Below are positions 27,616 to 45,154 of a stretch of DNA of 64,000 nt, piece after piece. The notes under the pieces are model-generated. The model had not been told where the DNA came from, ran no database searches, and saw only the letters and a list, made by a program, of their open reading frames with translations. Source of the DNA: Frankiaceae bacterium (lineage in GTDB: Bacteria > Actinomycetota > Actinomycetes > BP-191). Made by a program: the position numbers and the translations under genes. Position 1 is the stretch's first letter. Each line of letters opens with the position of its first letter. Location of the stretch: the NCBI GenBank assembly GCA_035556555.1, contig DATMES010000020.1, forward strand, positions 62,001-126,000. Direction: 5' to 3'.

Positions 27616-27643
27616 ACGTTACGTACCGGACTACTGCGCGGCT

Positions 27644-27661: not shown

Positions 27662-27946
27662 TTCCGTCCCCGGACAACAGACAACCCCCGGGCTTGCCAC
27701 GGGCCGACCGGCGGTCGGAACGCGGGCCGGCTGGACGAGAGCCGGCACCCGGGGGCGCGGTGTCTGTCTTGGTCTCCGCCGTGCGCCGGAAGGCGCCGGG
27801 CGGTGGCCCGACATCAGGCCGGCGGCTAGCGGACAGCCACCTCACGAGTCCGTTGATCATGCATGAATCGGACCACCTCCCTTCCCGTGTCCGGCCACGG
27901 TACGTCGGCTCGGGAGGCCCCGCAATCGGAATCTTCGGAACGCCGC

Positions 27947-28011
27947 GTTTTCGGTGATCTTGGCGGGATTCGCGCTGCTCGACGCGCACGAACGCAGCCA
28001 CGATCGCGAAA
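27947..28011. repeat. Imperfect palindrome, copy 2 of the repeat at 129-195
   Basis: It shares the exact 16-mer tttcggtgatcttggc with copy 1 in the left arm, and gcacgaac-n-cagcca in the right arm, but its arms pair less well. It lies just after the NlpC/P60 stop and may act as its terminator. Confidence 0.6.
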
Positions 28012-28023
28012 GGCGAGCCTCGC

Positions 28024-29130: not shown

Positions 29131-29390
29131 GAGGCGGCACTCCAGGTGTGTCGTCGGCGGTGCTGTCAGGGCGAGGTTACCTCCCTGCTGCGCCGCCGGG
29201 CGGAACATCCCTCCGCCGTACGGCGCTGTGTCGCTCTCGTTACCCCAGGCAGCGCAACGTCTCGGGCATCCGCTCGTTTCAAGGAGCAGGGGACAGTTGT
29301 CGAACACGCCTGGGGGGGCGTCGATGACGCGCACCTCAGATCGCCCGCGATGCCCCGCGGACGGTCACGACGACGCGACGGAGATGGCAC
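29131..29390. other. 260-bp divergent intergenic region with possible structured leader
   Basis: It separates the NlpC/P60 gene (left) from the LPxTG-like gene (right). On the minus strand it contains cagggaggtaacctcgccctg, a compact stem, and other GC-rich helices ahead of the hydrolase start. c-di-AMP (ydaO) riboswitches are known before NlpC/P60 genes in Actinomycetota, but the match here is not good enough to call one. Confidence 0.35.
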
Positions 29391-30026
29391 GTGAAGCTGG
29401 GACACCTCGTCGGCATCCTGCTGCTGACGCTGACCTTGGGGACGGCCGTTCCGGCCGCCGCCCAGTACCCGCCTGTGGTGGGGAACGGCAGGGTCACGCG
29501 CAGCGAGGTCAAGCAGTGCCAGTGCACGCAGTTCTCCGGTGACGGCTTCGAGCCGGGCACGACGATCACCGTCGTCGACCGCGGGCCGAACGGCGCCGAG
29601 CGCGTCGTCGCGACCGTGACGGCCGACGACAGGGGCGGCTTCAAGGTCAAGGTCTGCTTCGACGAGAAGTCGCAGGAGGGCCGGCACACGCTCATCGCCC
29701 GCGGCATCGAGGCCGGCGGCGAGGACGCCCGCGAGGTGCGCGCCACGGTCCAGGTCGAGGGCACCACCTGCTTCGGCAAGGGCGACGAGGTCCACAACCC
29801 GAACGGCGTCGGCGGCGAAGGCGAGGAGGAGCAGCCCCGCGGCGGCTCCGGCGGCACGGACGGCGAGGGTACGGGCTCCGGTGACGGCACCGGCGTCGGC
29901 GGCGTCGGCCTGCCGCGCACGGGCACCGGGTACGTTCTTCCCGGCCTGCTCCTCGGGTTCACGCTCGTCGTCACCGGCGCCGGCGTCGTCCACCTGACGC
30001 GCCGCCGCCGCCTCGTCACCCTCTAG
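29391..30026 (+). CDS. Secreted protein with LPxTG-like sorting signal
   Basis: This 211-aa protein has a signal peptide (1-24), a Cys-containing beta domain (about 35-125, QCQCTQFSGDGFEPGTTITV), a Gly/Glu/Asp linker (about 135-175) and a C-terminal sorting signal LPRTGTGYVLPGLLLGF ending in RRRR. It should be anchored to peptidoglycan by a sortase, or remain membrane-held; no sortase gene is in the window. GGAG lies 7 nt before the GTG start. It is followed 19 nt later by the DUF4012 gene. Confidence 0.78.
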   Translation: MKLGHLVGILLLTLTLGTAVPAAAQYPPVVGNGRVTRSEVKQCQCTQFSGDGFEPGTTITVVDRGPNGAERVVATVTADDRGGFKVKVCFDEKSQEGRHTLIARGIEAGGEDAREVRATVQVEGTTCFGKGDEVHNPNGVGGEGEEEQPRGGSGGTDGEGTGSGDGTGVGGVGLPRTGTGYVLPGLLLGFTLVVTGAGVVHLTRRRRLVTL

Positions 30027-30045
30027 CTCCCTCTAGCGAGGCCCC

Positions 30046-31752
30046 ATGGCGCGCCGGCGCCTGCTCCTCGTCCTCGGACTGTTCCTGCTCATCGTCGTCG
30101 CGGCGGGCGCGTGGGTCGGCTTCCGCGGCATGGCCGCGCGCAAGCACCTGGACGCTGCCCGCGCCGAGGTGCCCGCGCTGCGTACGGCGCTGCTCTCCGC
30201 CGACCGTTCCTCCGTGCCCGCCAGGCTCGACCGCGTGCAGCGCTCCACCCGCGCCGCCCGGCGGCTCACCTCCGACCCGGTCTGGCGGCTCGCGTCGCGC
30301 GTGCCGTGGGCCGGGCGGACGCTGCGTACGGCCGGTGGTCTCGCCGCCGCCGTGGACGACCTCGCGCGGACGTCGCTGCCGGAACTGGACACGGCGTCGC
30401 GCGCGCTCTCGCTGAAGTCGTTGCGGCCCGCGGGCGACCGGGTCGCGCTGGAGCCGCTGGCAGCCGCGCGCGGTCCGCTCATGACGGTCCGCTCGTCGCT
30501 GTCGGCGACCGAGGAGCGGGTCCGCGCGCTGCCGTCGTCCGGCGTCCACGGCGCCGTCGTGTCCGCGCGGGCCGAGTTCCTCGGCGAGCTGGAGTCGTTG
30601 CGGCGCTCGACCGACGCGGCGGCGACCGCCGTCGAGGTGGCGCCGCCGATGCTCGGCCGCGACGGCAAGCGGCGCTACTTCCTCGCGATCCTCAACAACG
30701 CCGAGATGCGCGGCTCCGGCGGCCTCCTCGGGGCGTACGGAATCCTCGAAGCCGACCGCGGCCGGCTGAAGATGCGCGAGCTCGGCACCAACTCCTCGCT
30801 GCTCAACACCCGCCGCCCCGCGGTCGACATGGGCGAGGAGTTCAGGGCGCGGTACGGCCGGTTCGCCTCCGACTCGTACTGGGTCAACGCGAACATGAGC
30901 CCGCACTTTCCCGACGCGTCGCGGATCTGGACCGCGCTGTGGGCCCGGACGCACCGGGGGGAGAAGCTCGACGGCACCATCGCCATCGACCCGGTCGGGC
31001 TCGCCGCGATCCTGCGCGTCACAGGACCCGCCGGCGAGGTCACCGCCGACAACGTCGTCGACCTGACCGAGCGGGAGGCGTACGTCCGCTTCGCCGCCGA
31101 CAACGACGCCCGCGACCGGTACCTGCAGCGGGTGGCGCGGGCGGCGTACCTCAAGGCGGTGTCCGGCGCGGGCGACACGACGGCGCTGGTCCGCGCGCTG
31201 GCGTCGGCGGCGGGCGAGCGGCACGTCCAGGTGGCGTCGGAGCACGTGGTCGAGGCGGCGGCGTTGCAGGGCACGCCGCTCGGCGGGGCGATGCCGACCG
31301 AGCCTGCGCGGCCGTACCTCGAAGTGCTGGCGCAGAACGCCGGCGGCAACAAGCTCGACTACTACGTGCGCCGCTCGATCTCGTACGCGCGCGCCGGCGA
31401 CGAGGCGACGGTGACCGTCCGGCTGCGCAACGAGGCGCCGCCCGGCCTGCCGCCGTACGTCACCAACCGCCTCGACCTCCCTGGCCTCGTCGCCCCGGTG
31501 AAGGGCCAGCAGCGGCTGTACGTCTCCGTCTACAGCAGCGTTCGCTCCGGTCTGCTGGCGGCGACGCTGGACGGCAAGGAGGTCGCTCTGGAGTCGGAGG
31601 TGGACCGCGGGCACGCGGTGTTCTCGCTGTTCCTCGACCTCGACCCCGGGGACGAACGCGTGCTGACCCTGCGCATCCGCGAGCCGATGCCGGGCGCGCC
31701 CGTGGTGCGGCGCCAGCCGGTGGTCGTGCCCGACGCGATCACGGTCTCGTAG
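30046..31752 (+). CDS. DUF4012 membrane-anchored protein of polysaccharide loci
   Basis: This 568-aa protein has an N-terminal TM helix (about 5-24) and a large extracytoplasmic region. The DUF4012 core is recognised by [44 protein letters not shown] and [23 protein letters not shown]4012 proteins are common in exopolysaccharide and capsule clusters but have no proven role; their fold is related to LytR-CpsA-Psr-associated proteins only loosely. The stop codon TAG forms the first half of the gmd -10 element. Confidence 0.85.
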
Positions 31753-31755
31753 GGT
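31750..31755 (+). promoter_or_regulatory. -10 element (TAGGGT) of leaderless gmd, overlapping the previous stop codon
   Basis: TAGGGT ends 7 nt before the gmd ATG at 31763. Its first three bases are the TAG stop of the DUF4012 gene. Confidence 0.5.
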
Positions 31756-31762
31756 CTGCGGC

Positions 31763-32779
31763 ATGGCGAAGACCGCGCTGATCACCGGCATCACCGGGCA
31801 GGACGGGTCGTACCTCGCGGAGCTGCTGCTCGCGAAGGGGTACACGGTCCACGGGTTCATCCGCCGCGCGTCGACGTTCAACACCGACCGGATCGACCAC
31901 ATCTACCAGGACCCGCACGACACCGACCGGCGGCTCGTGCTGCACCACGCCGACCTCACCGAGGGCGTCGGGCTCGTCAACCTGCTGCGCGACGTACGGC
32001 CAGACGAGGTCTACCACCTGGCCGCGCAGTCGCATGTGAAGGTGTCGTTCGAGCTGCCCGACTACACCGGCGACACGACCGGGCTCGGCACGGTACGGCT
32101 GCTGGAGGCGATCCGCGCGGCGGGCGTGCCGTGCCGCTTCTACCAGGCGTCGTCGTCGGAGATGTACGGCTCCACGCCGCCCCCGCAGAACGAGACGACG
32201 CCGTTCTACCCCCGCTCTCCCTACGGCTGCGCGAAGCTCTACGGCTACTGGATCACGGTCAACTACCGCGAGTCGTACGACCTGTACGCCGTCAACGGCA
32301 TCCTCTTCAACCACGAGTCGCCGCGGCGCGGTGAGACGTTCGTGACCCGCAAGATCACGCGCGCGGTGGCGCGGATCAAGGCCGGCATGCAGGAGAAGCT
32401 CTACCTCGGCAACCTCGACGCGGTGCGCGACTGGGGGTACGCGCCGGAGTACGTCGAGGGCATGTGGCGGATGCTGCAGCGGGACGATCCGTCGGACTAC
32501 GTGCTCGCGACGGGGCACGCGATGACGGTGAAGGAGTTCGCTGTCGCCGCCTTCGCGCGGGTGGGGCTGGCGGCGGACGACTACGTCGAGATCGACCCGC
32601 GCTACCAGCGCCCCGCCGAGGTGGACGCGCTGATCGGGGACGCGTCCAAGGCTCGCGCCGAGCTGGGGTGGCAGGCGACGACGTACGGCACCGCTCTGGT
32701 GGACCTCATGGTGGACGCCGACGTCGAACGGCTGCAGGCCGAACGGGAGGGGCGGCTCGTCCGCGTCGATCGGCGCTGA
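31763..32779 (+). CDS. gmd: GDP-mannose 4,6-dehydratase
   Basis: This 338-aa short-chain dehydrogenase makes GDP-4-keto-6-deoxymannose from GDP-mannose. The NADP-binding motif [15 protein letters not shown], the diagnostic [20 protein letters not shown], the catalytic set SSSEMYG with YGCAK (Y-x-x-x-K), and [20 protein letters not shown] are all present. The length is typical. The product feeds GDP-fucose synthase encoded at 33300, or another 6-deoxyhexose route. Confidence 0.95.
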
Positions 32780-32818
32780 GGTGTGGACAGCGTCCTTGAC
32801 GACGTCCGTCGTACTGCC

Positions 32819-32824
32819 GATGGT
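32819..32824 (+). promoter_or_regulatory. Possible -10 (GATGGT) for 53-aa gene
   Basis: GATGGT ends 6 nt before the ATG at 32831 and supports that start over a GTG at 32783. Confidence 0.3.
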
Positions 32825-32830
32825 GTTCGT

Positions 32831-32992
32831 ATGAGCGAGCCCGCCCGCATCGACAGCGACGCGGACGTCGATGCTGCCCGCGAGGCGTTGGCGCAGCGCA
32901 TGCGCAAGGGTGACCTGACAGCGTTCGAGGAGTTCTTCCGCGGGCGCGGTATCGACGTCGGCACCATCGAGTGGGTCGAGCCGCCGCGCTAG
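32831..32992 (+). CDS. Small acidic protein of unknown function
   Basis: This 53-aa protein (MSEPARIDSDADVDAAREAL...) is helical and charged, ending FRGRGIDVGTIEWVEPPR. A GTG at 32783 in the same frame would add 16 residues. No family is recognised. Its stop TAG and that of the opposing gene share the palindrome CTAG, so the two genes meet end to end without a spacer. Confidence 0.5.
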   Translation: MSEPARIDSDADVDAAREALAQRMRKGDLTAFEEFFRGRGIDVGTIEWVEPPR

Positions 32993-33210
32993 CGGAGATA
33001 GCCGCGGTTCGCGTCGCGCACCGCGTCTTCGAGCACCTCGTACATGACGCCATGCGGGAACGGCACCCCGACGACACCTGAGTCGCCGTTACGCATCACG
33101 ACGCGCAGCCACGCGTGAGTCACGGCTGAGGGCGTGCCTTCGAGCGTGACGCGCACGATCTCGATGCGCACCACGTCTCTCCGGTCGATGCCGCTCAGCC
33201 ATTCCGTCAC
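32989..33210 (-). CDS. Small conserved-looking protein of unknown function
   Basis: This 73-aa protein (VTEWLSGIDRRDVVRIEIVR...) has alternating beta-strand patterns (THAWLRVVMRNGDSGVVGVPF) and a C-terminal helix (VMYEVLEDAVRDANRGYLR). The GTG start has a well-placed TAGCCT at 7 nt. No family is recognised. It is convergent with the 53-aa gene and could relate to it, but nothing shows a function. Confidence 0.55.
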   Translation of the reverse strand: MTEWLSGIDRRDVVRIEIVRVTLEGTPSAVTHAWLRVVMRNGDSGVVGVPFPHGVMYEVLEDAVRDANRGYLR

Positions 33211-33217
33211 CGATCCG

Positions 33218-33223
33218 AGGCTA
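33218..33223 (-). promoter_or_regulatory. -10 element (TAGCCT) of leaderless 73-aa gene
   Basis: TAGCCT on the minus strand ends 7 nt before the GTG at 33210. Confidence 0.5.
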
Positions 33224-33299
33224 GGAGCGCGCGAGAGCCGGAAACGACGCGGGAGTAAGTCTGTGGACGCCGGTTTCGCGGCTGTGGAGAAAGCGCGGA

Positions 33300-34256
33300 C
33301 TAACGCGCAGGCGGGTTCGCCAGGAACCACTCGTACGTCGCCGCGATGCCGTCGCGCAGGGGGATCTCCGGCTTCCAGCCGAGGGCGGTGATGCGCGAGA
33401 CGTCGAGCAGCTTGCGCGGCGTGCCGTCGGGCCGCGACGTGTCCCACTCGATCGTGCCGGCGTAGCCGACGACGTCCGCGACGAGCGCCGCGAGGTCGCG
33501 GATCGCGATGTCGTCGCCGACACCGACGTTGACCGGCTCCGGCGCGTCGTACTGCTCCAGCAGGTGCACGCACGCCCGCGCCAGGTCGTCGACGTGCAGG
33601 AACTCCCGCCGCGGCGTCCCCGTCCCCCAGAGCGTCACTGCCGGCGCGCCCGAGACCCGCGCCTCATGCATGCGCCGGATCAAGGCAGGGAGCACGTGCG
33701 ACGACTCGAGGTCGAAGTTGTCACCGGGGCCGTACAGGTTCGTCGGCATCGCCGAGACGAACGACGCGCCGTACTCCCGCCGCAGCGCCTGGACGTGCAG
33801 CACGCCCGCGATCTTCGCGATGGCGTACGCGTCGTTGGTCGGCTCCAGCGGACCGGTCAGCAGTGCCGACTCCGGGATCGGCTGCGGCGCGTGCTTCGGA
33901 TAGATGCACGACGAGCCGAGGAACAGCAGCCGCGAGACGCCCACGCGGTGAGCCGCGTCGAGGACGTTGAGCTGGATGCGCAGGTTGTCGGAGAGGAACT
34001 CCGCCGGGTACGTGTCGTTGGCCACGATGCCGCCGACCTTGGCGGCCGCGAGGATCACGTGCGAGGGGCGTTCGGCGTCGAAGAACGCGTCGACCGCGGG
34101 CCTGTCCCGCAGGTCGAGCTCGGCGGACGTCCGACCCAGGAGGCGAGCGAAGCCGAGCGACTCCAGGTGCCGCCAGATCGCCGAGCCGACGAGGCCACGG
34201 TGCCCCGCGACGTACACGCGGGCGTCCCTTGGCAACGGGAACACGGCGTCGGCCAT
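33300..34256 (-). CDS. fcl: GDP-L-fucose synthase
   Basis: This 318-aa epimerase-reductase turns GDP-4-keto-6-deoxymannose into GDP-L-fucose. VYVAGHRGLVGSAIWRHLE is the NADP-binding loop; FLGSSCIYPKHAPQPIPESA, the YAIAK motif and NLYGPGDNFD complete the WcaG/Fcl pattern. It is transcribed opposite to gmd but completes that pathway. The ATG at 34256 is preferred over a GTG 6 nt upstream because TACCTT lies 7 nt before it. Confidence 0.94.
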   Translation of the reverse strand: MADAVFPLPRDARVYVAGHRGLVGSAIWRHLESLGFARLLGRTSAELDLRDRPAVDAFFDAERPSHVILAAAKVGGIVANDTYPAEFLSDNLRIQLNVLDAAHRVGVSRLLFLGSSCIYPKHAPQPIPESALLTGPLEPTNDAYAIAKIAGVLHVQALRREYGASFVSAMPTNLYGPGDNFDLESSHVLPALIRRMHEARVSGAPAVTLWGTGTPRREFLHVDDLARACVHLLEQYDAPEPVNVGVGDDIAIRDLAALVADVVGYAGTIEWDTSRPDGTPRKLLDVSRITALGWKPEIPLRDGIAATYEWFLANPPAR

Positions 34257-34263
34257 GCCCACG

Positions 34264-34269
34264 AAGGTA
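34264..34269 (-). promoter_or_regulatory. -10 element (TACCTT) of leaderless fcl
   Basis: TACCTT on the minus strand ends 7 nt before the ATG at 34256. Confidence 0.5.
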
Positions 34270-34336
34270 CCCCCGGGCGCGAGGTTAGGCGGCTACCGTC
34301 CGTTGAAAGGGAAGGGGGAGAACCGGAGGGTCACGG

Positions 34337-35818
34337 GTGTCGGCGGCGGAGCGCGGCGTGCGCAGCCCCCGCATGCCCAAGAACGCCGTCCCCGACCCGG
34401 TCGCCGAGCCGCGCCCGCGGCCCGCGTGGGAGGCGTCGTACGCGCTCTCGCTGGTCCTCGTCGACGCCGCGCTCATCTCGGTCGCCGGCTACGTCGCGCT
34501 CGGCCGCTTCGGCGTCGACCGCACCGTCAACGGCATCCCGTACGGCGTCCTCGCCGTCCTCCTCGCACCCGTCTGGGTCCTCGTGCTCGCGGTCGGGCGG
34601 GCGTACGAGAGCAGGTTCGTCGGGGTGGGGTCGGACGAGTTCCGGCGGGTGTTCGACTCGTCGGTACGCCTCCTCGCCGCGGTGGCGACGACGGCGTTCG
34701 TGTTCCGGCTGCCGCTCTCGCGCGGGTTCGTCGGCGTGGCCTTCCCGCTCGGCACGGTGCTGCTCCTGCTCGGCCGCTACGGCGCCCGCCGCGTCCTGCA
34801 CCGCCTGCGCCGCAAGGGCCGGGCGGTGCACAACGTCCTCGTCGTCGGCGCCCGCGACGGTGTCGAGGCGGTCGTCGCGCAGATGTGCGAGTCGCCGCAC
34901 GCCGGCATGCGCGTCGTGGGCGCGTGCGTGCCCGACACGGAGCGTCCTGTCGTCGCGGGCGGCATTCACGTGAAGGTGTACGGCGTGCCGATGGAGGCCG
35001 CGCGCGCGGTCGGCGAGTGCGGTGCCGACACGGTCGCCGTCGCGGGTGGCTGGGCGATGGGAGCGGACGGCGTACGCCGCCTCGCCTGGCAGCTCGAGGG
35101 CAGCGGCGTCGACCTCGTCGTCGCGCCCTCGCTGACCAACGTCGCCGGCCCGCGCATCACGATCCGGCCGGTCGCCGGGCTGCCGCTGTTGCACGTGGAC
35201 GAGCCGGAGTTCACCGGGTTCCGGCGGCTCGTGAAGGGCGCGCTCGACAGGTCCCTGGCGGCGTTCATGCTGCTCGCCGGGAGCCCGGTGCTGCTGCTCG
35301 TCGCGCTCGCCGTCAAGGTCACCGACCGCGGCCCCGTCTTCTACGGCCAGGAGCGGATCGGGCGCGACGGCAAGGCGTTCCGCATCTGGAAGTTCCGCAG
35401 CATGTACGTCGGCGCCGACCGCGTCGTCGACGAGCTCGCGGAGCAGAACGAGAAGGACGCCGTCCTCTTCAAGATCCGCCGCGACCCGCGCGTCACGCCC
35501 GTCGGCCGTTGGCTGCGGCGGTTCTCCGTCGACGAGGTCCCGCAGCTCTGGAACGTCGTCAAGGGCGACATGTCCCTCGTCGGCCCGCGGCCGCCGCTGC
35601 CCAGCGAGGTCGAGAAGTACGGCTACGACGTCCGGCGCCGCCTGCTCGTCAAGCCCGGCGTCACCGGCCTCTGGCAGGTGTCCGGGCGCAGCGACCTGTC
35701 GTGGGAGGAGAGCGTCCGGCTCGACCTGCACTACGTCGAGAACTGGTCGGTCGCGATGGACGCGATGATCCTCTGGAAGACGTTCGGCGCGGTCGTCCGC
35801 GGACGGGGCGCGTACTGA
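34337..35818 (+). CDS. Polyprenyl-phosphate sugar-1-phosphate transferase (exopolysaccharide initiation)
   Basis: This 493-aa protein has four to five N-terminal TM helices (about 28-145), a CoA-binding-like Rossmann domain (about 155-270, NVLVVGARDGVEAVV) and a C-terminal bacterial sugar transferase domain (about 295-493). The last has VTDRGPVFYGQERIGRDGK, FRIWKFRSMYV, RRFSVDEVPQLWNVVKGDMS and LVGPRPPLPSEV. It loads the first sugar phosphate onto undecaprenyl phosphate. The sugar is unknown. It heads a rightward run of glycosyltransferases. GGAGG precedes the GTG. Confidence 0.94.
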   Translation: MSAAERGVRSPRMPKNAVPDPVAEPRPRPAWEASYALSLVLVDAALISVAGYVALGRFGVDRTVNGIPYGVLAVLLAPVWVLVLAVGRAYESRFVGVGSDEFRRVFDSSVRLLAAVATTAFVFRLPLSRGFVGVAFPLGTVLLLLGRYGARRVLHRLRRKGRAVHNVLVVGARDGVEAVVAQMCESPHAGMRVVGACVPDTERPVVAGGIHVKVYGVPMEAARAVGECGADTVAVAGGWAMGADGVRRLAWQLEGSGVDLVVAPSLTNVAGPRITIRPVAGLPLLHVDEPEFTGFRRLVKGALDRSLAAFMLLAGSPVLLLVALAVKVTDRGPVFYGQERIGRDGKAFRIWKFRSMYVGADRVVDELAEQNEKDAVLFKIRRDPRVTPVGRWLRRFSVDEVPQLWNVVKGDMSLVGPRPPLPSEVEKYGYDVRRRLLVKPGVTGLWQVSGRSDLSWEESVRLDLHYVENWSVAMDAMILWKTFGAVVRGRGAY

Positions 35819-35819
35819 C

Positions 35820-36854
35820 GTGCGCCGTGTCGTGTTCGCCAACAACTACTCGATGACGAAGGCGTTCGCCGACGTCACGCGCGGCGTCTACCCGGCGCAG
35901 CACCTGTACGGCGCCGACGCGCTGGAGCGGGCCGGCTGGGACGTCGCGGTGGCGCCGTTCACCTCGCGCTCCGATGCGCTGGCGCGCCGGCTTCGCTACC
36001 GGCTCGGCGACCTCGGGCAGGAGGCGTACGTCGTCCGCGCGCGCCGCCCCGCGTACAGCGGCGAGCCCAACTCCCTCGCCCTCCTCGCCTATCTGCGCGC
36101 GCTACGGCTGCGGCGCAGGCCGCTCGTCACGGTGCTGCACACGGTCCCGCGGCGGACAGCGCGGACGGCGTTGCAGCTGCGCGGGTACGACGCCGTCATC
36201 TGCCTGTCGTCGTACGTCCGCTCGGAGCTGCTCGCGGCGTTCGACCTCGACCCCGCGCGCGTGACGTGGGCGCCGTGGGGCCCGGCGCTCGATTTCCCTG
36301 GCTACGTCGCGGAGGCGGATGACGCGGTCGTGTCGTCGGGCAAGACCAACCGTGACCAGCCGACCTTGCTGGCGGCGCTCGACGGCATGCCCGGTGTCGT
36401 CTACGCGCGCTCGCCCCGCGGCCTCTCCGTACCCGAGGGCGTCGAGCTGGTCACCGACGAGACGCACGAGGACACCGTCGAGCCGGGCGGTCCGAAGTTC
36501 TCGTACGGGCACGTGCTCAAGGACCTCGTCGCCGCGTCGGTCGTCGCGATCCCGCTGAAGGACCCGGCGAAGATCAGCGGGCTCTCCGAGCTCAACGACG
36601 CCCTCGCCCTCGGCAAGCCCGTCGTCGTGACCCGGACACCGCACCTTGCCGACGTCGACGTCGAGGCGATCGGCTGCGGCTGCTGGGTAGACGCGGGTGA
36701 CGTCTCCGGCTGGCGCGAAGCGTTGACGTGGCTGCACGGCGACCCGGCACTGCGCGCGCGGATGGGCGCGGCCGGCAGGGCGTTCGCCGAGGAGAGGTGG
36801 AACGCCGCGATCTTCGGTGCCGCGGTCGTCGAGACGTTAGCGTCGGTGTCGTGA
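35820..36854 (+). CDS. Glycosyltransferase, GT-B fold
   Basis: This 344-aa protein has a GT-B layout: an N-terminal Rossmann-like half (VVFANNYSMTKAFADVTRG to VTVLHTVPRRTA) and a C-terminal half with GPKFSYGHVLKDLVAASVVA and the donor-binding ISGLSELNDALALGKPVVVTR. The Glu in the latter corresponds to the conserved GT4 family Glu. It starts with GTG 1 nt after the initiating transferase, so it may add the second sugar. The specificity is not readable. Confidence 0.8.
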   Translation: MRRVVFANNYSMTKAFADVTRGVYPAQHLYGADALERAGWDVAVAPFTSRSDALARRLRYRLGDLGQEAYVVRARRPAYSGEPNSLALLAYLRALRLRRRPLVTVLHTVPRRTARTALQLRGYDAVICLSSYVRSELLAAFDLDPARVTWAPWGPALDFPGYVAEADDAVVSSGKTNRDQPTLLAALDGMPGVVYARSPRGLSVPEGVELVTDETHEDTVEPGGPKFSYGHVLKDLVAASVVAIPLKDPAKISGLSELNDALALGKPVVVTRTPHLADVDVEAIGCGCWVDAGDVSGWREALTWLHGDPALRARMGAAGRAFAEERWNAAIFGAAVVETLASVS

Positions 36855-37672
36855 GGATCGCGCAGGCCGTACGCCATCGCGTCACCGAGCGCGGCGTCGA
36901 CGGGCAGCTCGAGCTGTGGCGTGAGCGGATCGAGGCGCGCCACCACAGGGAGCTGCTGGCCCGCGCGCGGGGCGGCCGCGACGTCTGCTGGGAGGAGCCG
37001 GACGGCGACGACGAGCCGCTGGTGACGATCCGCATCCCGACGTTCAACCGTTCCGAGGCGCTGGCGGACGTGGCGCTGCCGAGCGCATTGCGGCAGACGT
37101 ACGCCAAGATCGAGGTGCTCGTCATCGGCGACTGCACGGACGGTGCGACGGACCGCTTCATGGCGACGGTCCGCGACCCTCGCGTGCGCTACGTGAACCT
37201 GCCGCGGCCGGGCCTGTACCCCACGGACCCGCTGCAGCGCTGGCGCGTCTCGGGCACCCAGCCGATGAACGCCGCGCTGCTGCTCGCCCAGGGCGCGTGG
37301 ATCGCGCCGTGCGACGACGACGACGAGCTGACCGACGACCACGTCGAGGTGCTGCTGCGCGCGGCGAAGGCGCGGCGGCTGGAGTTCGTGCACTCGGTGA
37401 CGGAGACGCACTTCGCGGACGGGTCGTTCGGTCGCCTCGGCGCGCCCGAGCTGACCGTCGGCCAGGTGACGCACGGGTCGGTGCTGTACTCGATGGGGCT
37501 GCGCTTCCTCACGTACTCGTCGACCTGCCACCGCATCCCCGAGCCGCACGACTGGAACCTCTGGCGGCGGATGCGCGACCTCGGCGTCCGTATGGGGTTC
37601 GTCGACGCGGTGACCTACCGCTACTACGCGACCCGCGCCTCGACGCAGGGCGCTCCGGAGCCGAAGCCATGA
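36851..37672 (+). CDS. Family 2 glycosyltransferase
   Basis: This 273-aa GT-A enzyme has a ~55-aa helical N-terminal extension before the fold (LVTIRIPTFNRSEALADVAL). The nucleotide-sugar region IEVLVIGDCTDGATD and the metal site WIAPCDDDDELTDDHVE follow. The GTG overlaps the previous stop (GTGA) and the stop overlaps the next ATG (ATGA), marking tight co-translation in the glycosyltransferase run. Confidence 0.85.
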   Translation: MRIAQAVRHRVTERGVDGQLELWRERIEARHHRELLARARGGRDVCWEEPDGDDEPLVTIRIPTFNRSEALADVALPSALRQTYAKIEVLVIGDCTDGATDRFMATVRDPRVRYVNLPRPGLYPTDPLQRWRVSGTQPMNAALLLAQGAWIAPCDDDDELTDDHVEVLLRAAKARRLEFVHSVTETHFADGSFGRLGAPELTVGQVTHGSVLYSMGLRFLTYSSTCHRIPEPHDWNLWRRMRDLGVRMGFVDAVTYRYYATRASTQGAPEPKP

Positions 37673-38523
37673 GCGAGCCGTTCGTCAGCGTGCTGGTGCC
37701 GACGTACAACCGCGCCCATCTGCTCGACGGCGCGCTGACGTCGCTGCTGGCGCAGACGTACCCGTCGTACGAGGTCGTCGTCGTCAGCGACGGCTCCACC
37801 GATGACACCGCGGAGATCGCGCGCGGGTGGGCGGCGCGGGACTCGCGCGTGCGCTTCGTGGACGCTCCGCACGGCGGCCTGAACAGCGCGCGCAACGCCG
37901 CCCTCGCGGCAGCCCAGGGCGAGCTGCTCTGCTTCGTGGACGACGACGTCGTGGCGCCGCCCGGGTGGCTGGCCGCTCTGGTCTCGGGCTACGTGACGTA
38001 CCCGGACGCGGGCGCGTTCGGCGGCCCGATCCGGCTCTCGCTCGAACGCGCCGCCCCCCGCTCCTGCGGCCGTGAGGAGCTCGGCGAGACCGTTCTCGAC
38101 GCGGGTCCTTCGGTCATCGAGCCGTCGGTCCTCTACGGCTCCAACCTCGCCGTCACGCGCGCGGCGGTCGAGCTCGTCGGGCAGTTCGACGTGACGCTGC
38201 CGTCGAGCGGCGACGAGGAGGAGTGGCTGCGCCGGCTGCGCGCGGCGGGGCGGCGGGTGCTGTACCTGCCGGACGCCGAGGTGCTGCACCGGCGTACCGA
38301 GGAGGACCTGCTGCTGCGCAACCTCGTGCGCAAGCGGTACGCGCGAGGCCGCGACCAGGTGACGTTCGACCGCAAGGTCGGCAACGCCGTCAGCGCGCGC
38401 GCCGAGGTACGCCAGGTCGTCGCGTCGGTCGCGCACTCCGCGCGGTCGCGCTGCGCCCTCGGGCTCGTGGCCGCGGCCGGCGCGGCGGGGCGGCTCGTCG
38501 GCATCTGGCGGACCCGCGGGTGA
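37669..38523 (+). CDS. Family 2 glycosyltransferase
   Basis: This 284-aa protein is a classical GT2: FVSVLVPTYNRAHLLDGALT, VVVVSDGSTDDTAEIA, LNSARNAALAAAQGELLCFV and the DxD-type DDDVVAPPGW. An acceptor region SSGDEEEWLRRLRAAGRRV and ADAEVLHRRT-like histidine motif follow. A hydrophobic C-terminus (about 258-278) may associate with the membrane. Overlaps of 4 nt on both sides keep it in the operon. Confidence 0.9.
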   Translation: MSEPFVSVLVPTYNRAHLLDGALTSLLAQTYPSYEVVVVSDGSTDDTAEIARGWAARDSRVRFVDAPHGGLNSARNAALAAAQGELLCFVDDDVVAPPGWLAALVSGYVTYPDAGAFGGPIRLSLERAAPRSCGREELGETVLDAGPSVIEPSVLYGSNLAVTRAAVELVGQFDVTLPSSGDEEEWLRRLRAAGRRVLYLPDAEVLHRRTEEDLLLRNLVRKRYARGRDQVTFDRKVGNAVSARAEVRQVVASVAHSARSRCALGLVAAAGAAGRLVGIWRTRG

Positions 38524-39704
38524 CCCGGCGGCCGCTGTCGCTCGTCGCCTGGGCGCTCGCGCTGGTCACGGCCGCGGCGGTGGTGTGGCAGGCGTTCACG
38601 ACCGGGCGTATCGAGCAGGCGGACGGGTGCGGGTTCGACGGCGAGCAGTACTGCGCGGCGGCGCGCGGCGAACGGATCGCGCCGCCGTACAGCCGCCGTC
38701 CGCTCGTGCCTCTCCTGGTGCGTGCCCTGCGCCTCGGCTCCGTCCTGGACCGCTTCCTCGTCGTGGACCTGGTCGCGCTGGCCGTGGCGGCGTTCCTCGT
38801 CGGTGTCCTGGTGGTGCGGCTCGCGGGCGACGCGGCTCGGTCGCGGGCGGTGGCCGCCGCGGTGGTGGCCGGGTGCCTCGTGCTGCTGCAGCCGTTGACC
38901 GTGCACGCGGCGTTCGCGTACCCGGCGGCCACCGACCCCGTGGCGTTGGCGCTCGCGCTGGGATGGCTGGTGCTGCTGCTCGGCGGGCGGCCGTGGCTTT
39001 CGTTGCCGGTGGCCGTGCTGCTCGTCCTCGCGCGCGAGTCGTGGGGCCCGGTCGTCGTGGCTGTCGTCGTCGTGGACGCGCTGCTCGACCGGTCGCAGTG
39101 GCGGCTCGCCGTCGTGACCGCCGTCGCTTGTGCCGGGGCCGTCGCGGTCGACTTCCTGCAGCCGTCCGCGGGGACGTCGATGTCGACCGTTCAGGTCGTG
39201 AAGACGTGGCTGCGGGCGCACTTCGGCAGCGGCGGCGGGCTGGCGCGGCTGGTCTGGATGACCGTGACGGGGCTGGGGCTGGTGCCGCTGCTGCTCGTCG
39301 CGCGGTCGTCGTGGCGGGTCCCGCGCAGGCCGCTGGCGCTGCTGGTGACGGCGGCGTTGCTCAACGCCGTGCTCGCCGTCATCGGCGGCAACGACACCGC
39401 CCGGCTGCTCCTGCCGACCATGGCCATCGCGCTGGCGCCGGCCCTCGCGGCGGTCGCGCGATCACCGCGCCTCGACCTGCCGCTCGTGGCGCTGGTGGTG
39501 GGCTGCGTGGCGTTATGGCGGCCCTGGACCGTCGCGCCGACCGACGTGGACGGCTTCCTCGCGTACTTCACGCCGTACTACTCGTCCGGCGAGGTCTTCA
39601 CCCGGCGCCTTGTGCTGGACCTCGGCGTGGCAGTTGCGGCCGGCTGTGCTGCCGCTGTGTCTGCCTATCGCTTGCCATTGTTTCCGGGTGAGACGACACC
39701 TTGA
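38520..39704 (+). CDS. Polytopic membrane protein, possibly a GT-C-like or polymerase protein
   Basis: This 394-aa protein has about nine to ten TM helices and an extracytoplasmic Asp/Glu-Cys loop after the first helix (QADGCGFDGEQYCAAARGE with RRPLVPLLVRAL). The first-loop acidic residues and topology are reminiscent of GT-C glycosyltransferases or of membrane proteins in mannan-type clusters, but no family signature is certain. It overlaps the GT2 gene by GTGA. It is the last gene before a change in base composition. Confidence 0.55.
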   Translation: MTRRPLSLVAWALALVTAAAVVWQAFTTGRIEQADGCGFDGEQYCAAARGERIAPPYSRRPLVPLLVRALRLGSVLDRFLVVDLVALAVAAFLVGVLVVRLAGDAARSRAVAAAVVAGCLVLLQPLTVHAAFAYPAATDPVALALALGWLVLLLGGRPWLSLPVAVLLVLARESWGPVVVAVVVVDALLDRSQWRLAVVTAVACAGAVAVDFLQPSAGTSMSTVQVVKTWLRAHFGSGGGLARLVWMTVTGLGLVPLLLVARSSWRVPRRPLALLVTAALLNAVLAVIGGNDTARLLLPTMAIALAPALAAVARSPRLDLPLVALVVGCVALWRPWTVAPTDVDGFLAYFTPYYSSGEVFTRRLVLDLGVAVAAGCAAAVSAYRLPLFPGETTP

Positions 39705-39793
39705 TCCTGGCGTAGAGGTGCCGTTGCTCTTGACAGCACCTAGGCCCAGGTCAAAGGTCCCGAGTTGTCCTAATTTCATAGAACGGGGGAACG

Positions 39794-40447
39794 ATGCGAA
39801 CAAGCTTGCGAAGGTTGGTCGTGTCCTTGGCCGCCGCCGCTTCCGTCGGCGGCTTTCTCGTGCCCGCGCAAGCCGCGGGAGAGGGATGGACGCTGGTCAG
39901 TAGTGGCGTCGCCGAGAAGAGCGTCGATCTTGACGTACACCTCGCGGTGCCGGTTCGGCCCAAGTCTGAATCCGCGCCGTGCCTGCCGACGCAGACCGGC
40001 ATGGAGACGCACTCGCTGAGCTGGGAGGTCTGGTACAACCCGCAGTACGGCGCCGTCGCCTACGACTGGTCCAACGGCGGGATGGCGTGGTCATCGACGA
40101 AGTGCTCGACTGCCGCGCGCGTCACCATCTCACTCACGGACTACGCTCCGAATGGAAAGCCCCCGGTCGTGTTCGGGGCTCCGCTGATGATCACTCAGAC
40201 GCGGGCGGCGAATGGCCGCTATACCGCGACGAGCCTGCCCAACGCGGGTCTGTGGGTCGAGTACTACAACTTCCCGAATCTGTACATGCGCGGTGAGGCC
40301 CTGGTCGAGACGAAGGTGAAGGGCGAGTACCGCAACCATGACGGGAAGTGGGTGACTATCGGGTGCACGGTTACCTATAACACCGTCCACCCCACGCCCA
40401 CTGGTCCGCAGGTGGACCGACCCACGGCGCCGCAGCCCTGCCGGTGA
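39794..40447 (+). CDS. Secreted protein of unknown function, first of a pair
   Basis: This 217-aa protein has a signal peptide (1-27, MRTSLRRLVVSLAAAASVGG to AQAA) and a beta-rich mature domain with aromatic patches (SLSWEVWYNPQYGAVAYDW, LWVEYYNFPNLYMRGEALVE) and several Cys that could form disulfides. No family is recognised. Codon use has more A/T at third positions than neighbours (GCA, ACT and TAT codons appear). GTGA overlap couples it to the next secreted protein. Confidence 0.6.
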   Translation: MRTSLRRLVVSLAAAASVGGFLVPAQAAGEGWTLVSSGVAEKSVDLDVHLAVPVRPKSESAPCLPTQTGMETHSLSWEVWYNPQYGAVAYDWSNGGMAWSSTKCSTAARVTISLTDYAPNGKPPVVFGAPLMITQTRAANGRYTATSLPNAGLWVEYYNFPNLYMRGEALVETKVKGEYRNHDGKWVTIGCTVTYNTVHPTPTGPQVDRPTAPQPCR

Positions 40448-41502
40448 GCCGACGGTCGAGCCGCGAGTCGACGAAACGCCTCGTTCGCGTACGCGTCGCG
40501 GCTGTTGTTGCGCTCGCGGCACTTGCCGTCGTGCACACGCCCGCACCGGCATCCGAGAGCGCGGGGATGCTGGTGTTGTCAGGGCGCGGCGCGTCCTCGG
40601 TCGAGGTGTCGTTCAAGTCGCCGGTGACCATCATGCCGATGCGACTTCAGGACAACGGCGCGAACGGCTGGTCATGGACGGGATGTGGCGGAATTCGGGG
40701 CTTCTACCTGCAGCCGCTCTCGGGGAACGCCATGGCCGGCGCCGGAGCCGTCGATTTCGCAGCTCTTGAGTACGGCAGCGCGGCCGACGTCCTTCCGGGC
40801 CCGTCGCTGCCGCGGACACCGGTCGGGCTCGGTACCAGGCTCCTCGACGGCAGTGGTGGAAACCAGGGGCCCACGTTCGAGACCACCGTCACGCTTCGAC
40901 CAGGTCGCTACCGTGCGCACCTCCTCGGGGAGGGTGCCTGCACTGTCCGGGTGCCGATGGAAGGACTGCGCAGCTCGGTTCGCAAAGCCACCTCCCAGCG
41001 GACGCGTCTGCAGTTCGACGTCGCTGCGCTTGGGCCTACCGGCTCCGGAGCCTCGCCTGCGTTGCCGGTGCCCCATGCGGGGGTTGCAACTTTCCCCATG
41101 ACAGTGCGCTCGACCACCCTGGCTTTCTCGTTGCTCCACCGGCTCAACTACGCGCAGGCTGGAGGCCCGACGGGAGTCTCCGCGTACGAGCTCTGTATTG
41201 AGCCCGACGCGGCACCGCCGTGCGGCCAGTTCAACGGCACGACACTCCCCGGACGCACCGTTCCGGAGCGGTCCGGCTTCTACCACCAGTCGATGACCAT
41301 TTCCTCAGGAGGTCCCGTCGGCCCCGGAGGTGGGCCGTTGCCCGTGCCGCTACCACATCTCATCCATGCCTCCACGACGAACCTGGCGACGTGGTACGCG
41401 CCTGGATGGCTCGTCCCGGGGACCTATACCGCGAAGGTGGTCCTCGGATCGACGTTGTCCACGACGACGCAGGCGGCGATGTTCGCGCTCGACCTCGGCT
41501 AA
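40444..41502 (+). CDS. Secreted protein of unknown function, second of a pair
   Basis: This 352-aa protein has a signal peptide after a long basic n-region (about 1-38, ending APASESAG) and three or four beta-rich stretches (MLVLSGRGASSVEVSFKSP, VTLRPGRYRAHLLGEGAC, FPMTVRSTTLAFSLL). It ends FALDLG. No family is recognised. The GTG overlaps the preceding stop. As with its partner, codon use is less GC-biased than the flanking glycosyltransferases. The pair may be envelope proteins acting on or binding the polysaccharide; that is inference. Confidence 0.6.
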   Translation: MSRRSSRESTKRLVRVRVAAVVALAALAVVHTPAPASESAGMLVLSGRGASSVEVSFKSPVTIMPMRLQDNGANGWSWTGCGGIRGFYLQPLSGNAMAGAGAVDFAALEYGSAADVLPGPSLPRTPVGLGTRLLDGSGGNQGPTFETTVTLRPGRYRAHLLGEGACTVRVPMEGLRSSVRKATSQRTRLQFDVAALGPTGSGASPALPVPHAGVATFPMTVRSTTLAFSLLHRLNYAQAGGPTGVSAYELCIEPDAAPPCGQFNGTTLPGRTVPERSGFYHQSMTISSGGPVGPGGGPLPVPLPHLIHASTTNLATWYAPGWLVPGTYTAKVVLGSTLSTTTQAAMFALDLG

Positions 41503-42203
41503 CGGAGCCACGGCGGGGTGCGCTGCCAGGGGCGCCAGGTCGCCAGCGTCCCCTGGATCTCGTGCAGCCCGCCGAGGCCCGCCGCCGCCAGCCGCTCCGC
41601 GAGCCGTTCGCGCTCGGGTCCTTGCGAGTACGACGTCGCCACCGGCGCGAGGTGACGCATCGGCGCCGCGTCCACGATGCCCAGCCGGGCGCCGCGCCGG
41701 TGCAGCGCGTACCAGTCCGCCTCGAGCCCCCAGCCCATCCCCGCGTCCTCCGGGAACGGCAGCACCGAGGCACGCCACCGAGGCGACACCGCGAACACCG
41801 GCCCGATCTCCACGAACTCCGTCACCCGCGCCACCGACCACCGGGCCCGCAGCGTCACCGGGTGCGACAGGTGGGAGAGGTGCCGGCGGTGCGCCGGCTG
41901 CGCGAGGTCGAACGCCGCCCGCCGCGCCAGCCGCAGGAAGAGGCGCCACGACACCAGCCGTACGTCGTCGTCGGCCACGACCACGTACGCATCGGGCGCG
42001 ACAGCCGACACAGCGAGCAGCTCGTTCACCAGCGAGAACTTCGTGCCAGGTCCGCTCCCCACGGTCCACCGCGACAGAGAAGGCACGGTCTCGTCGAGCG
42101 CCCACAAGCGCGCCGCACCGCCACTCCGCAGACAGGAACGTACGAGCTGCCGGACGACGTCAGCGTTGCGCGCGCGGTAGACGCAGAGCAGCACGTCACT
42201 CAC
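41499..42203 (-). CDS. Glycosyltransferase-like protein (GT-A type)
   Basis: This 234-aa protein has a GT-A-like order: VLLCVYRARNADVVRQLVRS, SGPGTKFSLVNELLAV (in place of the usual A-R-N region), the metal site YVVVADDDVRLV and PEDAGMGWGLEADWYALHRR near the acceptor site. It is shorter than usual and lacks the common P-T-Y-N motif. It overlaps the acetyltransferase upstream by 8 nt, and its stop interlocks with the stop of the secreted-protein gene at 41502. Confidence 0.7.
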   Translation of the reverse strand: MSDVLLCVYRARNADVVRQLVRSCLRSGGAARLWALDETVPSLSRWTVGSGPGTKFSLVNELLAVSAVAPDAYVVVADDDVRLVSWRLFLRLARRAAFDLAQPAHRRHLSHLSHPVTLRARWSVARVTEFVEIGPVFAVSPRWRASVLPFPEDAGMGWGLEADWYALHRRGARLGIVDAAPMRHLAPVATSYSQGPERERLAERLAAAGLGGLHEIQGTLATWRPWQRTPPWLR

Positions 42204-42630
42204 GGCGGCCCACGCGCCGGGCCGGCGCCCCCGCCCAGATCTCGTTCTCGCCGGTCGACGACAGCAGCACGGCGTTCGCCCCGACGACGGTGCCGCGCCC
42301 GACGGTGAGCACGCCGCTCTTGCCGAGGATCGCCGCGCCCGCGCAGACGACGACGTCGTCCTCGAGCACGATGCGCTGCAACGGGCTCAGGTCGCCGGGC
42401 ACCCACGGGTCGGCGCGGCCGATGGTGACCCCGTGGTACAGCGTGACGTTCGCGCCGAGCGTCACGCCGGGGTGGACGACGGTGCCGAAGCCGCGGTGCA
42501 TGACGCGCAGCCCTGGCCCGACGCGCACGCCGGGCGGCACCTCCATGCCGTACAGCGCCAGCAGCTCCTTGGCGACGCGGCGCAGCCCGGGACGGTCCCG
42601 CAGGTAGACCAGCCGAGCCGCCAGCGACAT
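42196..42630 (-). CDS. Serine O-acetyltransferase-like hexapeptide acetyltransferase
   Basis: This 144-aa protein has a left-handed beta-helix: VRVGPGLRVMHRGFGTVVHP, VTLYHGVTIGRAD, VVVCAGAAILG and VGANAVLLSSTGENEIWAGA. It resembles CysE-family proteins found in polysaccharide clusters that O-acetylate sugars, and the short N-terminus (no CysE helical domain) argues against true serine acetylation. The 8-nt overlap with the GT-like gene suggests a two-gene unit modifying the glycan. Confidence 0.82.
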   Translation of the reverse strand: MSLAARLVYLRDRPGLRRVAKELLALYGMEVPPGVRVGPGLRVMHRGFGTVVHPGVTLGANVTLYHGVTIGRADPWVPGDLSPLQRIVLEDDVVVCAGAAILGKSGVLTVGRGTVVGANAVLLSSTGENEIWAGAPARRVGRRE

Positions 42631-42665
42631 GTGGCAATCGTGGCAGAACGCACGCCACCGAGACC

Positions 42666-42671
42666 TAGACT
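42666..42671 (+). promoter_or_regulatory. -10 element (TAGACT) of leaderless ligase/polymerase gene
   Basis: TAGACT ends 7 nt before the GTG at 42679. It lies in the 48-nt divergent gap behind the acetyltransferase start. Confidence 0.5.
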
Positions 42672-42678
42672 CGCCAGC

Positions 42679-44118
42679 GTGCGAGCCACGCTCGACCTGC
42701 CCCCCGCCACCGTCGACCGCGCCCGCGCGGCCGCGCTGACAGCGGGCGCTGCCGCGTTCGCGTACCTCGCCGCCCAGCGCGTCCTCCTCGGCGGCGCGAT
42801 GGTGCTGCTGCTCGTCCTCGCGATCGGCCTCGCGGTCCTCGTCATCGAACGTCCCCGCGTCACGGTCGCGGTCATGCTCGTCTTCAGCGCGCCGCTCGCG
42901 GAGCCGCTGCGCCGCCAGGTCGCCGTCGGCGGCATCGTCACGGACACGTTCGAGGTGCTGGCCTACGCCCTCGTCGCGCGCTGGGTCCTCAGCCGCGGCC
43001 GCGAGGCGAAGACGCCGTCATGGCAGTTCGCCTCGCCGGTCGTCCTGCTGGTGCTCGGCGCCACGGCCGGCGCGGCGTACGGCCTGTTCCGCTACGCCGA
43101 CCGCGCGCTCGTCCTCGGCCAGTACAAGTCGTACCTCGTCTACCTCCTCGTGCTGCCGCTGACGGCGCTGTTCGCGACGGCGGCGGAGAAGCGCAGGCTC
43201 GAACGCTGGGTCGTCAGCTTCTGCGTCTTCGGCTCGCTCGTCGTCCTCGGCGCGGCGGCGACGGGCAGCTCGACGCCGAGCGAGGCGCCGAACATCCCCA
43301 TCAACACGTTCGGCATCACGACACAGGTCAACCGCATCCGCCCAGCCATGCTCTGGCTGCTCTTCCTCGCGACGCTCATCGTGCTGGGCCAGGTCTTCGC
43401 GTACGGCATGACCCGCGCCAACGCGCTGCGCCTCGCGCTCTTCCTCGGTGTCTGGGTCTTCTCGTTCAACCGGTCGTCGTGGGGTGCGCTCGTCGTCTGC
43501 GGCGGCCTCCTCGCGCTGCTGCGGCCAGGCCCGCGCAGGCCAGGGAGAGGCCTGAGAACGGCGGCCATCGGCGCATTGCTGCTGCCCGTCCTCTGGGGCA
43601 CCGCCGCGAGCGGTGTGCTGGGCCCGAGCATCGAGCAGGTGCCCGCGCGGCTGGAGAGCCTGGTCAACCCCGAGGTCCGCAACGAGGACGCCATCCAGGA
43701 CCGCGCGACGGAGTACCCGTTCGCCTTCAAGGCGTTGCGCGAGAGCCCCGTCTTCGGCGTCGGTCTCGGGCGGTCGTACGGCGCGCGGCGGCCGTTCTAC
43801 AACCCGCGCCTCGGCGTCGTCGTCTACGAGGACCGGCCGTTCTCGCACAACAGCCTGCTGTTCGCGTACCTCCAGACCGGCCTGCTCGGCGTCGCCGCGC
43901 TCGTCTGGCTCGGGATCGCGGCCTGGCGCGCGGCGGTGACGGCGGTGCGCACGCTGCCGACCGAGGTGTCGTTGCGCATCCTCGTCGGCAGCCTCGCGCT
44001 GCTCGGGTACGGCATCCAGTCGATCTCGCAGACCAGCCTGCTGCACCGGCCCGGCATCACCGCCGCGGTCATCGCGATGGTGCTCGCCACCCGGCCGCGG
44101 GAGCTGCTGCGTGGCTGA
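42679..44118 (+). CDS. O-antigen ligase/polymerase-like membrane protein (Wzy/WaaL family)
   Basis: This 479-aa polytopic protein has about eleven hydrophobic segments. A large periplasmic-side loop (about 320-395) carries VFGVGLGRSYGARRPFYNPR and the key FSHNSLLFAYLQTGLLGV, the H-N-x-(L/Y)-L-x-x-(L/Y) pattern of the O-antigen ligase family. It should polymerise repeat units or transfer glycan outside the membrane. The GTG start is set by the -10 element. The next glycosyltransferase overlaps it by 8 nt. Confidence 0.85.
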   Translation: MRATLDLPPATVDRARAAALTAGAAAFAYLAAQRVLLGGAMVLLLVLAIGLAVLVIERPRVTVAVMLVFSAPLAEPLRRQVAVGGIVTDTFEVLAYALVARWVLSRGREAKTPSWQFASPVVLLVLGATAGAAYGLFRYADRALVLGQYKSYLVYLLVLPLTALFATAAEKRRLERWVVSFCVFGSLVVLGAAATGSSTPSEAPNIPINTFGITTQVNRIRPAMLWLLFLATLIVLGQVFAYGMTRANALRLALFLGVWVFSFNRSSWGALVVCGGLLALLRPGPRRPGRGLRTAAIGALLLPVLWGTAASGVLGPSIEQVPARLESLVNPEVRNEDAIQDRATEYPFAFKALRESPVFGVGLGRSYGARRPFYNPRLGVVVYEDRPFSHNSLLFAYLQTGLLGVAALVWLGIAAWRAAVTAVRTLPTEVSLRILVGSLALLGYGIQSISQTSLLHRPGITAAVIAMVLATRPRELLRG

Positions 44119-45154
44119 CCGCGTCCTCTGGGTCGGTACGCAGCTGACGACGGCCCCGCGCTCCGGCGGCGCGATCCGTTCGCTGCGGCTGCTCGAAGCC
44201 CTCGCCCGGCACGCCGAGGTCGACCTGCTGACGACCGAACGCTCCGGCGGCGAGCTGCCCGTCGCCTCGCACACGCCCGTCCCGTCGCCCGCCAAGCCTC
44301 TGCGCGCGCTCGGCCTCGCGCGGGGCTGGCCGCGCGCCACCGCGCGGTCCTGCTCGCGCGCGGGAGCCAAGGCCGCGGAACGACTGGCCGCCAACGCATC
44401 CCACGTCGTCGTCGAGTGGGTGCACCTCTTCCCGCTCGTGCCGAGGCATGGCCCGTACGTCCTCTCGCTGCACAACGTCGAGGCCGACCGTTCCACCGAC
44501 AAGCGCCTGGTCGCGGCCGAACGCCGCCTCGTCGCCGACCCGCGCGCGACCACGGTCGTCGTCTCCGAGCGCGACCGCGGCCTCCTGGGCATCGACGCCA
44601 CCGTCGTCCCCAACGGCACCGACATCCCCTCCGTCACGACCGAGGTGCGGGCCGACGGGGACGTGCTGTTCGTCGGCGCGATGGACTACGGACCCAACCG
44701 CCACGCCGTGGAGTGGTGGGCCGGAAACGTCTGGCGCGCAGGGCTTCCGCCGCTCACCGTCGCGGGACGCAGCGCGGGAACGCTCCCCCCGATGGACGGC
44801 GTCCGCGTCCTCGGCGAGGTCGAGTCGGTGGCGCCGCTGCTGGAGCGCGCGGCCCTCGTCGCGGTGCCTCTCCACCACGGCGGAGGTACGCGGCTCAAGG
44901 TGCTGGAGGCGTTCGCCGCCGGCCGGCCCGTGCTGTCGACGAGCAAGGGCGTCGAGGGTTTGCGCGTCGGCGGCGCGTGCGCGATCGCGGACGACCCGAG
45001 GGAGTTCGGCAACGCCGTCGCGCTGCTGCTCGGCGACCTGCCTCGCCGCCGCGCGCTCGCCGCCGCGGGGCGCAAGGTCGCCGAGGAGCACGCGTGGGGA
45101 CCGCTCGGCGAGGCGTTCGCGCGGGCCGTGCTGACGTCGCCGGGGCGCCGATGA
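44111..45154 (+). CDS. Family 4-like glycosyltransferase
   Basis: This 347-aa GT-B protein has RVLWVGTQLTTAPRSGGAIR at its N-terminus (acceptor side), the linker YVLSLHNVEADRS, VVVSERDRGLL and PNGTDIPSV (family P-N-G-x-D), then VLFVGAMDYGPNRHAVEWW and HHGGGTRLKVLEAFAAGRPV with the conserved Glu. It is close to sugar transferases of the TuaH/exosortase-cluster type. It is coupled to the neighbours by 8-nt and ATGA overlaps. Confidence 0.9.
   Translation: MADRVLWVGTQLTTAPRSGGAIRSLRLLEALARHAEVDLLTTERSGGELPVASHTPVPSPAKPLRALGLARGWPRATARSCSRAGAKAAERLAANASHVVVEWVHLFPLVPRHGPYVLSLHNVEADRSTDKRLVAAERRLVADPRATTVVVSERDRGLLGIDATVVPNGTDIPSVTTEVRADGDVLFVGAMDYGPNRHAVEWWAGNVWRAGLPPLTVAGRSAGTLPPMDGVRVLGEVESVAPLLERAALVAVPLHHGGGTRLKVLEAFAAGRPVLSTSKGVEGLRVGGACAIADDPREFGNAVALLLGDLPRRRALAAAGRKVAEEHAWGPLGEAFARAVLTSPGRR

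What the first reader, a model, noticed from the sequence alone, without database searches (positions are those of the whole stretch)
39794..41502. Pair of unrecognised secreted proteins with different codon use inside the polysaccharide locus
Seen: two translationally coupled (GTGA) signal-peptide proteins, no family, with more A/T-ending codons than neighbours, flanked by glycosyltransferase genes. Inferred: a laterally acquired surface module, or a lectin-like or processing pair for the exported glycan.
Basis: partly seen in the sequence, partly recalled or inferred. Interest (0 to 1): 0.55.

Follow-up and report, generated by a model that had tools for sequence, protein, structure and literature searches.

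The report
Paired orphan secreted proteins, mix-and-match family
Two coupled genes for exported proteins of no named family turn out to be one of many scattered look-alike pairs in an uncultured actinobacterium, sitting in its sugar-coat gene cluster as an optional insert rather than as part of it.

Summary
ORF A (39794-40447, 217 aa) and ORF B (40444-41502, 352 aa) overlap by GTGA, start with signal-peptide-like stretches, match nothing in Pfam, NCBIfam or PDB sequences, and have atypical codon use (GC3 0.83 and 0.78; mean of 48 window genes 0.93).

In a congener (G002) the polysaccharide cluster is collinear at 75-80% DNA identity, but A, B and the membrane-protein gene before them are missing; a UvrA-like gene sits there instead. 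The pair is accessory, not a conserved glycan component. Its closest kin are another A-B pair in the same genome, so recent foreign origin is unsupported.

B belongs to an undescribed multi-copy secreted family (17 matches in this genome). Many copies directly follow a small Cys-bearing secreted partner gene, and partners come from about ten unrelated families. B subclades and partner families agree on the tree (3 changes; 0 of 2000 shuffles as few), also across taxonomic families. A-type and one other partner type also occur beside a second anchor family, C.

I read the pair as a co-secreted, disulfide-stabilised, beta-rich complex with exchangeable partners. Complex formation and molecular function are inferred; the structure models were too poor to use.

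The parts
39794..40447 (+). ORF A, 217 aa, signal-like N-terminus, four cysteines (63, 104, 191, 216); small partner subunit
   Evidence: cysteines invariant in three close relatives; homologues
40444..41502 (+). ORF B, 352 aa, signal-like N-terminus, cysteines 81, 166, 251, 260; anchor subunit of the multi-copy family
   Evidence: C251 and C260 invariant in 39 rows; family
40444..40447 (+). GTGA overlap: stop codon of A inside the start of B (translational coupling inferred)
38518..41502 (+). Accessory block (membrane-protein gene 38520-39704 plus A and B) with no counterpart in the syntenic locus of G002

Best explanation
A and B are co-translated, exported together, fold as disulfide-stabilised beta-rich proteins and form a heteromeric complex at or outside the cell envelope. 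B is the anchor subunit of a family that this lineage has multiplied; A is one of several unrelated small Cys-bearing subunits that can stand beside an anchor (B or C). This copy is an accessory insert in the polysaccharide cluster, not part of the glycan machinery. Shown by sequence: the coupled pair, the expanded family, the recurrent secreted neighbour, the agreement of B subclade with partner family, and absence from the syntenic locus. Inferred: export (signal-like N-termini), complex formation, fold, location, and a role in envelope or contact biology.
For: A second A-B pair in the same genome. 17 B matches in G000 and 12 in G002. Secreted partner directly upstream in 18 of 43 B genes against 15 of 94 other secreted-type genes (p 0.0013) and 14 of 214 others; 17 of 43 after correction by eye. 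Partner families agree with B subclades: 3 changes, 0 of 2000 shuffles as few, with a clade spanning two taxonomic families. A-type and L082-type partners also beside family C. Synteny gap in G002.
Against: 25 or 26 of 43 B genes have no such partner directly upstream, so B can probably act alone or with distant genes. One A homologue has neither B nor C next to it. Secreted-type genes cluster in general (15 of 94). Structure models are too poor (mean pLDDT 38.4 and 38.6), so neither fold nor interface is supported. Signal peptides are heuristic. Agreement on the tree could reflect joint duplication of neighbours without physical contact.
Confidence: 0.45

Rival explanations
1. Glycan-associated pair: a lectin-like or processing pair acting on the polysaccharide exported by this cluster, possibly strain-specific together with the preceding membrane protein.
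For: Position inside the cluster between glycosyltransferase genes; the preceding membrane protein has a weak match to a glycopolymer-formation family (NF046093, E 0.0042, 16.3 bits against a cut-off of 150).
Against: Cluster conserved without the pair in G002; the nearest paralogous pair is next to an RHS-repeat ORF, not a glycan cluster; no lectin, carbohydrate-binding or glycosidase match.
Confidence: 0.15
2. Recently transferred foreign module with no particular bond to this genome, marked by its codon use.
For: Lowest GC3 of the region; absent from the syntenic site in G002.
Against: Nearest kin are in the same genome and genus; B paralogues share lower GC3; no match in plasmids for B or in viral contigs for A.
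Confidence: 0.15
3. Interbacterial conflict pair: an exported antagonist with an exported protector, diversified like polymorphic toxin systems.
For: Partner variety, strong divergence and broken copies; the second pair lies just downstream of a large RHS-repeat ORF.
Against: No toxin or immunity match in Pfam or NCBIfam (PADLOC was not searched); both products look exported, whereas immunity proteins of such systems usually stay inside (recalled); only one of the pairs read is next to an RHS gene.
Confidence: 0.1
4. Two unrelated secreted orphan genes that are neighbours because secreted-type genes cluster; no joint function.
For: Other secreted-type genes also have secreted upstream neighbours (15 of 94); many B genes have no partner.
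Against: A-B found twice in the genome and partner families agree with B subclades beyond shuffles.
Confidence: 0.15

Closest known systems
PPC (PF04151) and similar small bacterial beta-sandwich domains
   Same: Secreted beta-rich domain; motif of the kind PAGxYRLxL before a strand (resemblance recalled)
   Different: Profile comparison gives no relation (probability 0.2); no Pfam match among 39 B proteins beyond single chance-level lines
Polymorphic toxin / RHS systems
   Same: Lineage-variable secreted parts with exchangeable neighbours; one pair is just downstream of an RHS-repeat ORF
   Different: No toxin or immunity domain found; both products look exported
Accessory genes of surface-polysaccharide clusters
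   Same: Located inside such a cluster
   Different: Cluster conserved without it in G002; paralogues mostly lie elsewhere

Membership tests
PPC domain (PF04151) | Profile match to the family | tested here: not met
   No Pfam PPC match in 39 B proteins; hhalign of 39 B against 11 PPC regions (one of them, L115, evidently out of frame) gives probability 0.2
Conserved component of this polysaccharide cluster | Present at the syntenic locus of congeners | tested here: not met
   Absent from the only syntenic locus found, in G002; the ligase was not found in G001, so n = 1
Lectin or carbohydrate-processing protein | Match to a carbohydrate-binding or glycoside-active family | tested here: not met
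   No match at the thresholds used
Lectin or carbohydrate-processing protein | Binds or changes a glycan | not testable with these tools
   Needs an assay
Polymorphic toxin-immunity pair | Recognisable toxin domain with a cytoplasmic immunity partner | tested here: not met
   No such domain; both N-termini look like signal peptides (heuristic)
Bacterial Ig-like or other beta-sandwich fold | Confident beta-sandwich model | tested here: inconclusive
   Models with mean pLDDT 38.4 (B) and 38.6 (A); strand-rich only
Recent lateral transfer | Nearest relatives outside the lineage | tested here: not met
   Nearest relatives in the same genome and genus

The most novel reading that the evidence does not exclude
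A combinatorial extracellular system in rarely cultured Actinomycetota: two unrelated anchor families (B and C) are dispersed round the genome, many copies paired with one of a pool of unrelated small disulfide-bearing subunits, so that each cell line makes its own set of surface or exported complexes, used in recognition of neighbours, surfaces or phages.
Probability: 0.2. Interest if true: 0.75.

Novelty: new variant of a known kind. Interest (0 to 1): 0.45.

Why it matters
It turns one odd gene pair into a testable family: dozens of paralogous secreted genes, many in pairs, in a lineage known here from assemblies, with partner type tied to subfamily. If the pairing is physical, this is an undescribed class of actinobacterial exoprotein complex. 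It also takes the pair off the list of polysaccharide genes, which matters to anyone annotating such clusters.

Tried and rejected
Recent foreign origin from low GC3: not accepted as proof, because B paralogues share lower GC3 and nearest kin are in the genus. PPC-domain membership: rejected. A, B and C as one superfamily: hhalign gave B-C probability 55% but over 18 columns only, B-A 17.5% (mostly the signal peptide), C-A 1.8%; left as unrelated. Weak B matches in wide samples (E about 5e-6 to 1e-3), many covering only the N-terminal stretch, were not counted as members: 7 of the 17 genomes and 12 of the 16. PDB profile hits at E 0.003-0.006 are designed Ig-like proteins over some 35-50 positions and were not used. 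No fold search was made, as the models are too poor. Viral contigs (A) and plasmids (B) gave nothing. Paper searches listed nothing on these families; I saw the search listings with abstract starts only, so this is weak evidence of absence from print. In one search only 5 candidates per genome were scored (6); one search scored all candidates in six genomes.

Full report
Observation. The two ORFs exist as described: A 39794-40447 (217 aa) and B 40444-41502 (352 aa), overlapping by GTGA. Neither has a convincing match in Pfam, NCBIfam or PDB sequences. In 48 picked window genes the mean GC3 is 0.930 (sd 0.050); A has 0.83 and B 0.78. Against 146 other genes of at least 100 codons from 17 stretches of the same genome, 4 have lower GC3 than A and 0 lower than B; for CAI 2 and 0. 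My gene caller prefers typical codon use, so atypical genes are under-represented there. Signal peptides are judged by a simple heuristic.

Genome. The window lies in G000 (3.98 Mb, 71 contigs). A same-genus genome, G001, has a contig of the same length (68,551) and with the same hit as a record titled 'MAG: Frankiaceae bacterium isolate BP_191', so the window's organism is probably an uncultured relative of that one.

Locus. Flanking genes match GDP-mannose dehydratase, an epimerase, bacterial sugar transferase, GT4 and GT2 families; on the far side DUF707, a hexapeptide transferase, Wzy_C ligase, GT4, GT2, Wzz with an AAA domain, WbsX and an ABC exporter. The gene directly before A is a 9-TM protein (count from my script) without Pfam match. 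The ligase has a 70% identical match in congener G002 and none in G001. The G002 contig is collinear with the window at DNA level over most of 25025-38517 (75-80%), 41503-42190 (75%) and 42618-45146 (75%); 38518-41502 has no collinear counterpart, and the place holds a 782-aa UvrA-like gene (L107:3263-5611 minus; its UvrA score of 679.7 lies under the cut-off of 729.8). One 46-base stretch inside the block (38939-38984) matches elsewhere in that contig and is not collinear. tblastn of A, B and the membrane protein against the 20-kb stretch gives only chance lines. The membrane protein is found in 1 of 3 genus genomes. The block is therefore accessory; gain here or loss in G002 cannot be told, and only one syntenic locus was available.

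Family. A has a 33% and B a 46% identical paralogue that sit together at C55 of the same genome, 81 bp apart, just downstream of a 2,879-codon RHS-repeat ORF. A profile of 15 B proteins finds 17 matches in G000, 12 in G002, 5 each in G001, G022 and G159, and 4 in G169 (some of the last are weak or interrupted by a stop). With a 39-row profile, 17 of 393 class genomes have a match at E 1e-3 or less, 10 of them below 1e-10; in a phylum sample 16 of 396, 4 of them below 1e-10. A was found in 3 of 393 class genomes. No convincing Pfam or NCBIfam match exists among 39 B proteins or among 21 A, partner and C proteins. Two cysteines of B (251, 260) are invariant in the 39-row alignment, and the four cysteines of A are invariant in its three-row alignment.

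Pairing. In 43 B genes from six genomes, 18 are directly preceded on the same strand, within 120 bp, by a secreted-type gene without TM of at most 310 aa; the same holds for 15 of 94 other secreted-type genes (Fisher p 0.0013) and 14 of 214 remaining genes (p 3e-8) in the same stretches. By eye, one of the 18 (L086) is the end of a longer ORF, one (L102) is doubtful, and one true pair (L070) was missed because its start was clipped: 17 of 43. The 18 partners fall into 12 clusters, three with more than one member; without L086 and L102, ten; L070's partner resembles that of L078. On a tree of 41 B proteins (two short pieces, L076 and L100, left out) the four partner families with two or more labelled members (11 rows) need 3 changes, the minimum; 0 of 2000 label shuffles reach 3, and 24 reach 4. 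One T2 row (L068) has an unresolved place, 18 of 38 inner branches are open, and the bootstrap had not settled. Related copies are not independent, so the shuffle count is not a strict probability. The T1 clade (99/96) joins own-genome copies with copies in G169, which belongs to another taxonomic family. The broken B in L066 still has, upstream, a short remnant resembling the end of a T2 partner.

Mix and match. In G001 the A homologue overlaps or closely precedes (start uncertain) not a B but a gene of another secreted family, C. In G169 and G159 A-like genes directly follow C genes; these are weak against the A profile (E 8.9e-5 and 1.4e-4, and 0.019 for a second copy in G169) and join the A cluster by phmmer linkage. 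One further A homologue in G169 has neither B nor C next to it. C has 6, 3, 1, 0, 3 and 2 matches in G000, G001, G002, G022, G159 and G169. The partner type that flanks a B in L082 (G002) occurs directly before a C in L136 (G000). Of 12 C neighbourhoods fetched, my script placed no gene on the probed point in 2 (L138, L144), and several of the other 10 have no secreted neighbour.

Structure. Two AlphaFold2 jobs gave mean pLDDT 38.4 (B, two-row alignment) and 38.6 (A alone); only the strand-rich secondary structure is suggestive. No fold search was made on such models.

Reading. The pair is best seen as one unit of a dispersed set of secreted gene pairs with exchangeable partners, most likely forming heteromeric extracellular complexes. 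Recurrence of pairs and partner-subclade agreement are shown by sequence; export, complex formation, fold and function are inference. Some copies are conserved in place: B genes in G001 and G002 follow the same sigma-factor-like gene (L079, L083), and C genes in G000 and G001 share their neighbours (L140, L142).

Noticed in passing
window 42196-42630 (-): Hexapeptide-transferase gene is also missing from the syntenic G002 locus: a second difference in the same cluster.
   Followed up: partly
L010:1742-10381 (own genome, C55): 2,879-codon RHS-repeat ORF directly upstream of the second A-B pair.
   Followed up: partly
L069, L073, L099: Three B genes lie divergently next to ECF-sigma-like genes (by eye).
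   Followed up: no
L070, L078, L082: B genes flanked on both sides by related small secreted genes, so some cassettes have three or more genes.
   Followed up: partly
L011:3084-9563 (own genome, C2): Run of small orphan secreted genes with one B and one C copy near a contig end.
   Followed up: no
L107:3263-5611 (-) (G002, C61): UvrA-like gene of 782 aa at the place where the window has the membrane protein, A and B.
   Followed up: partly
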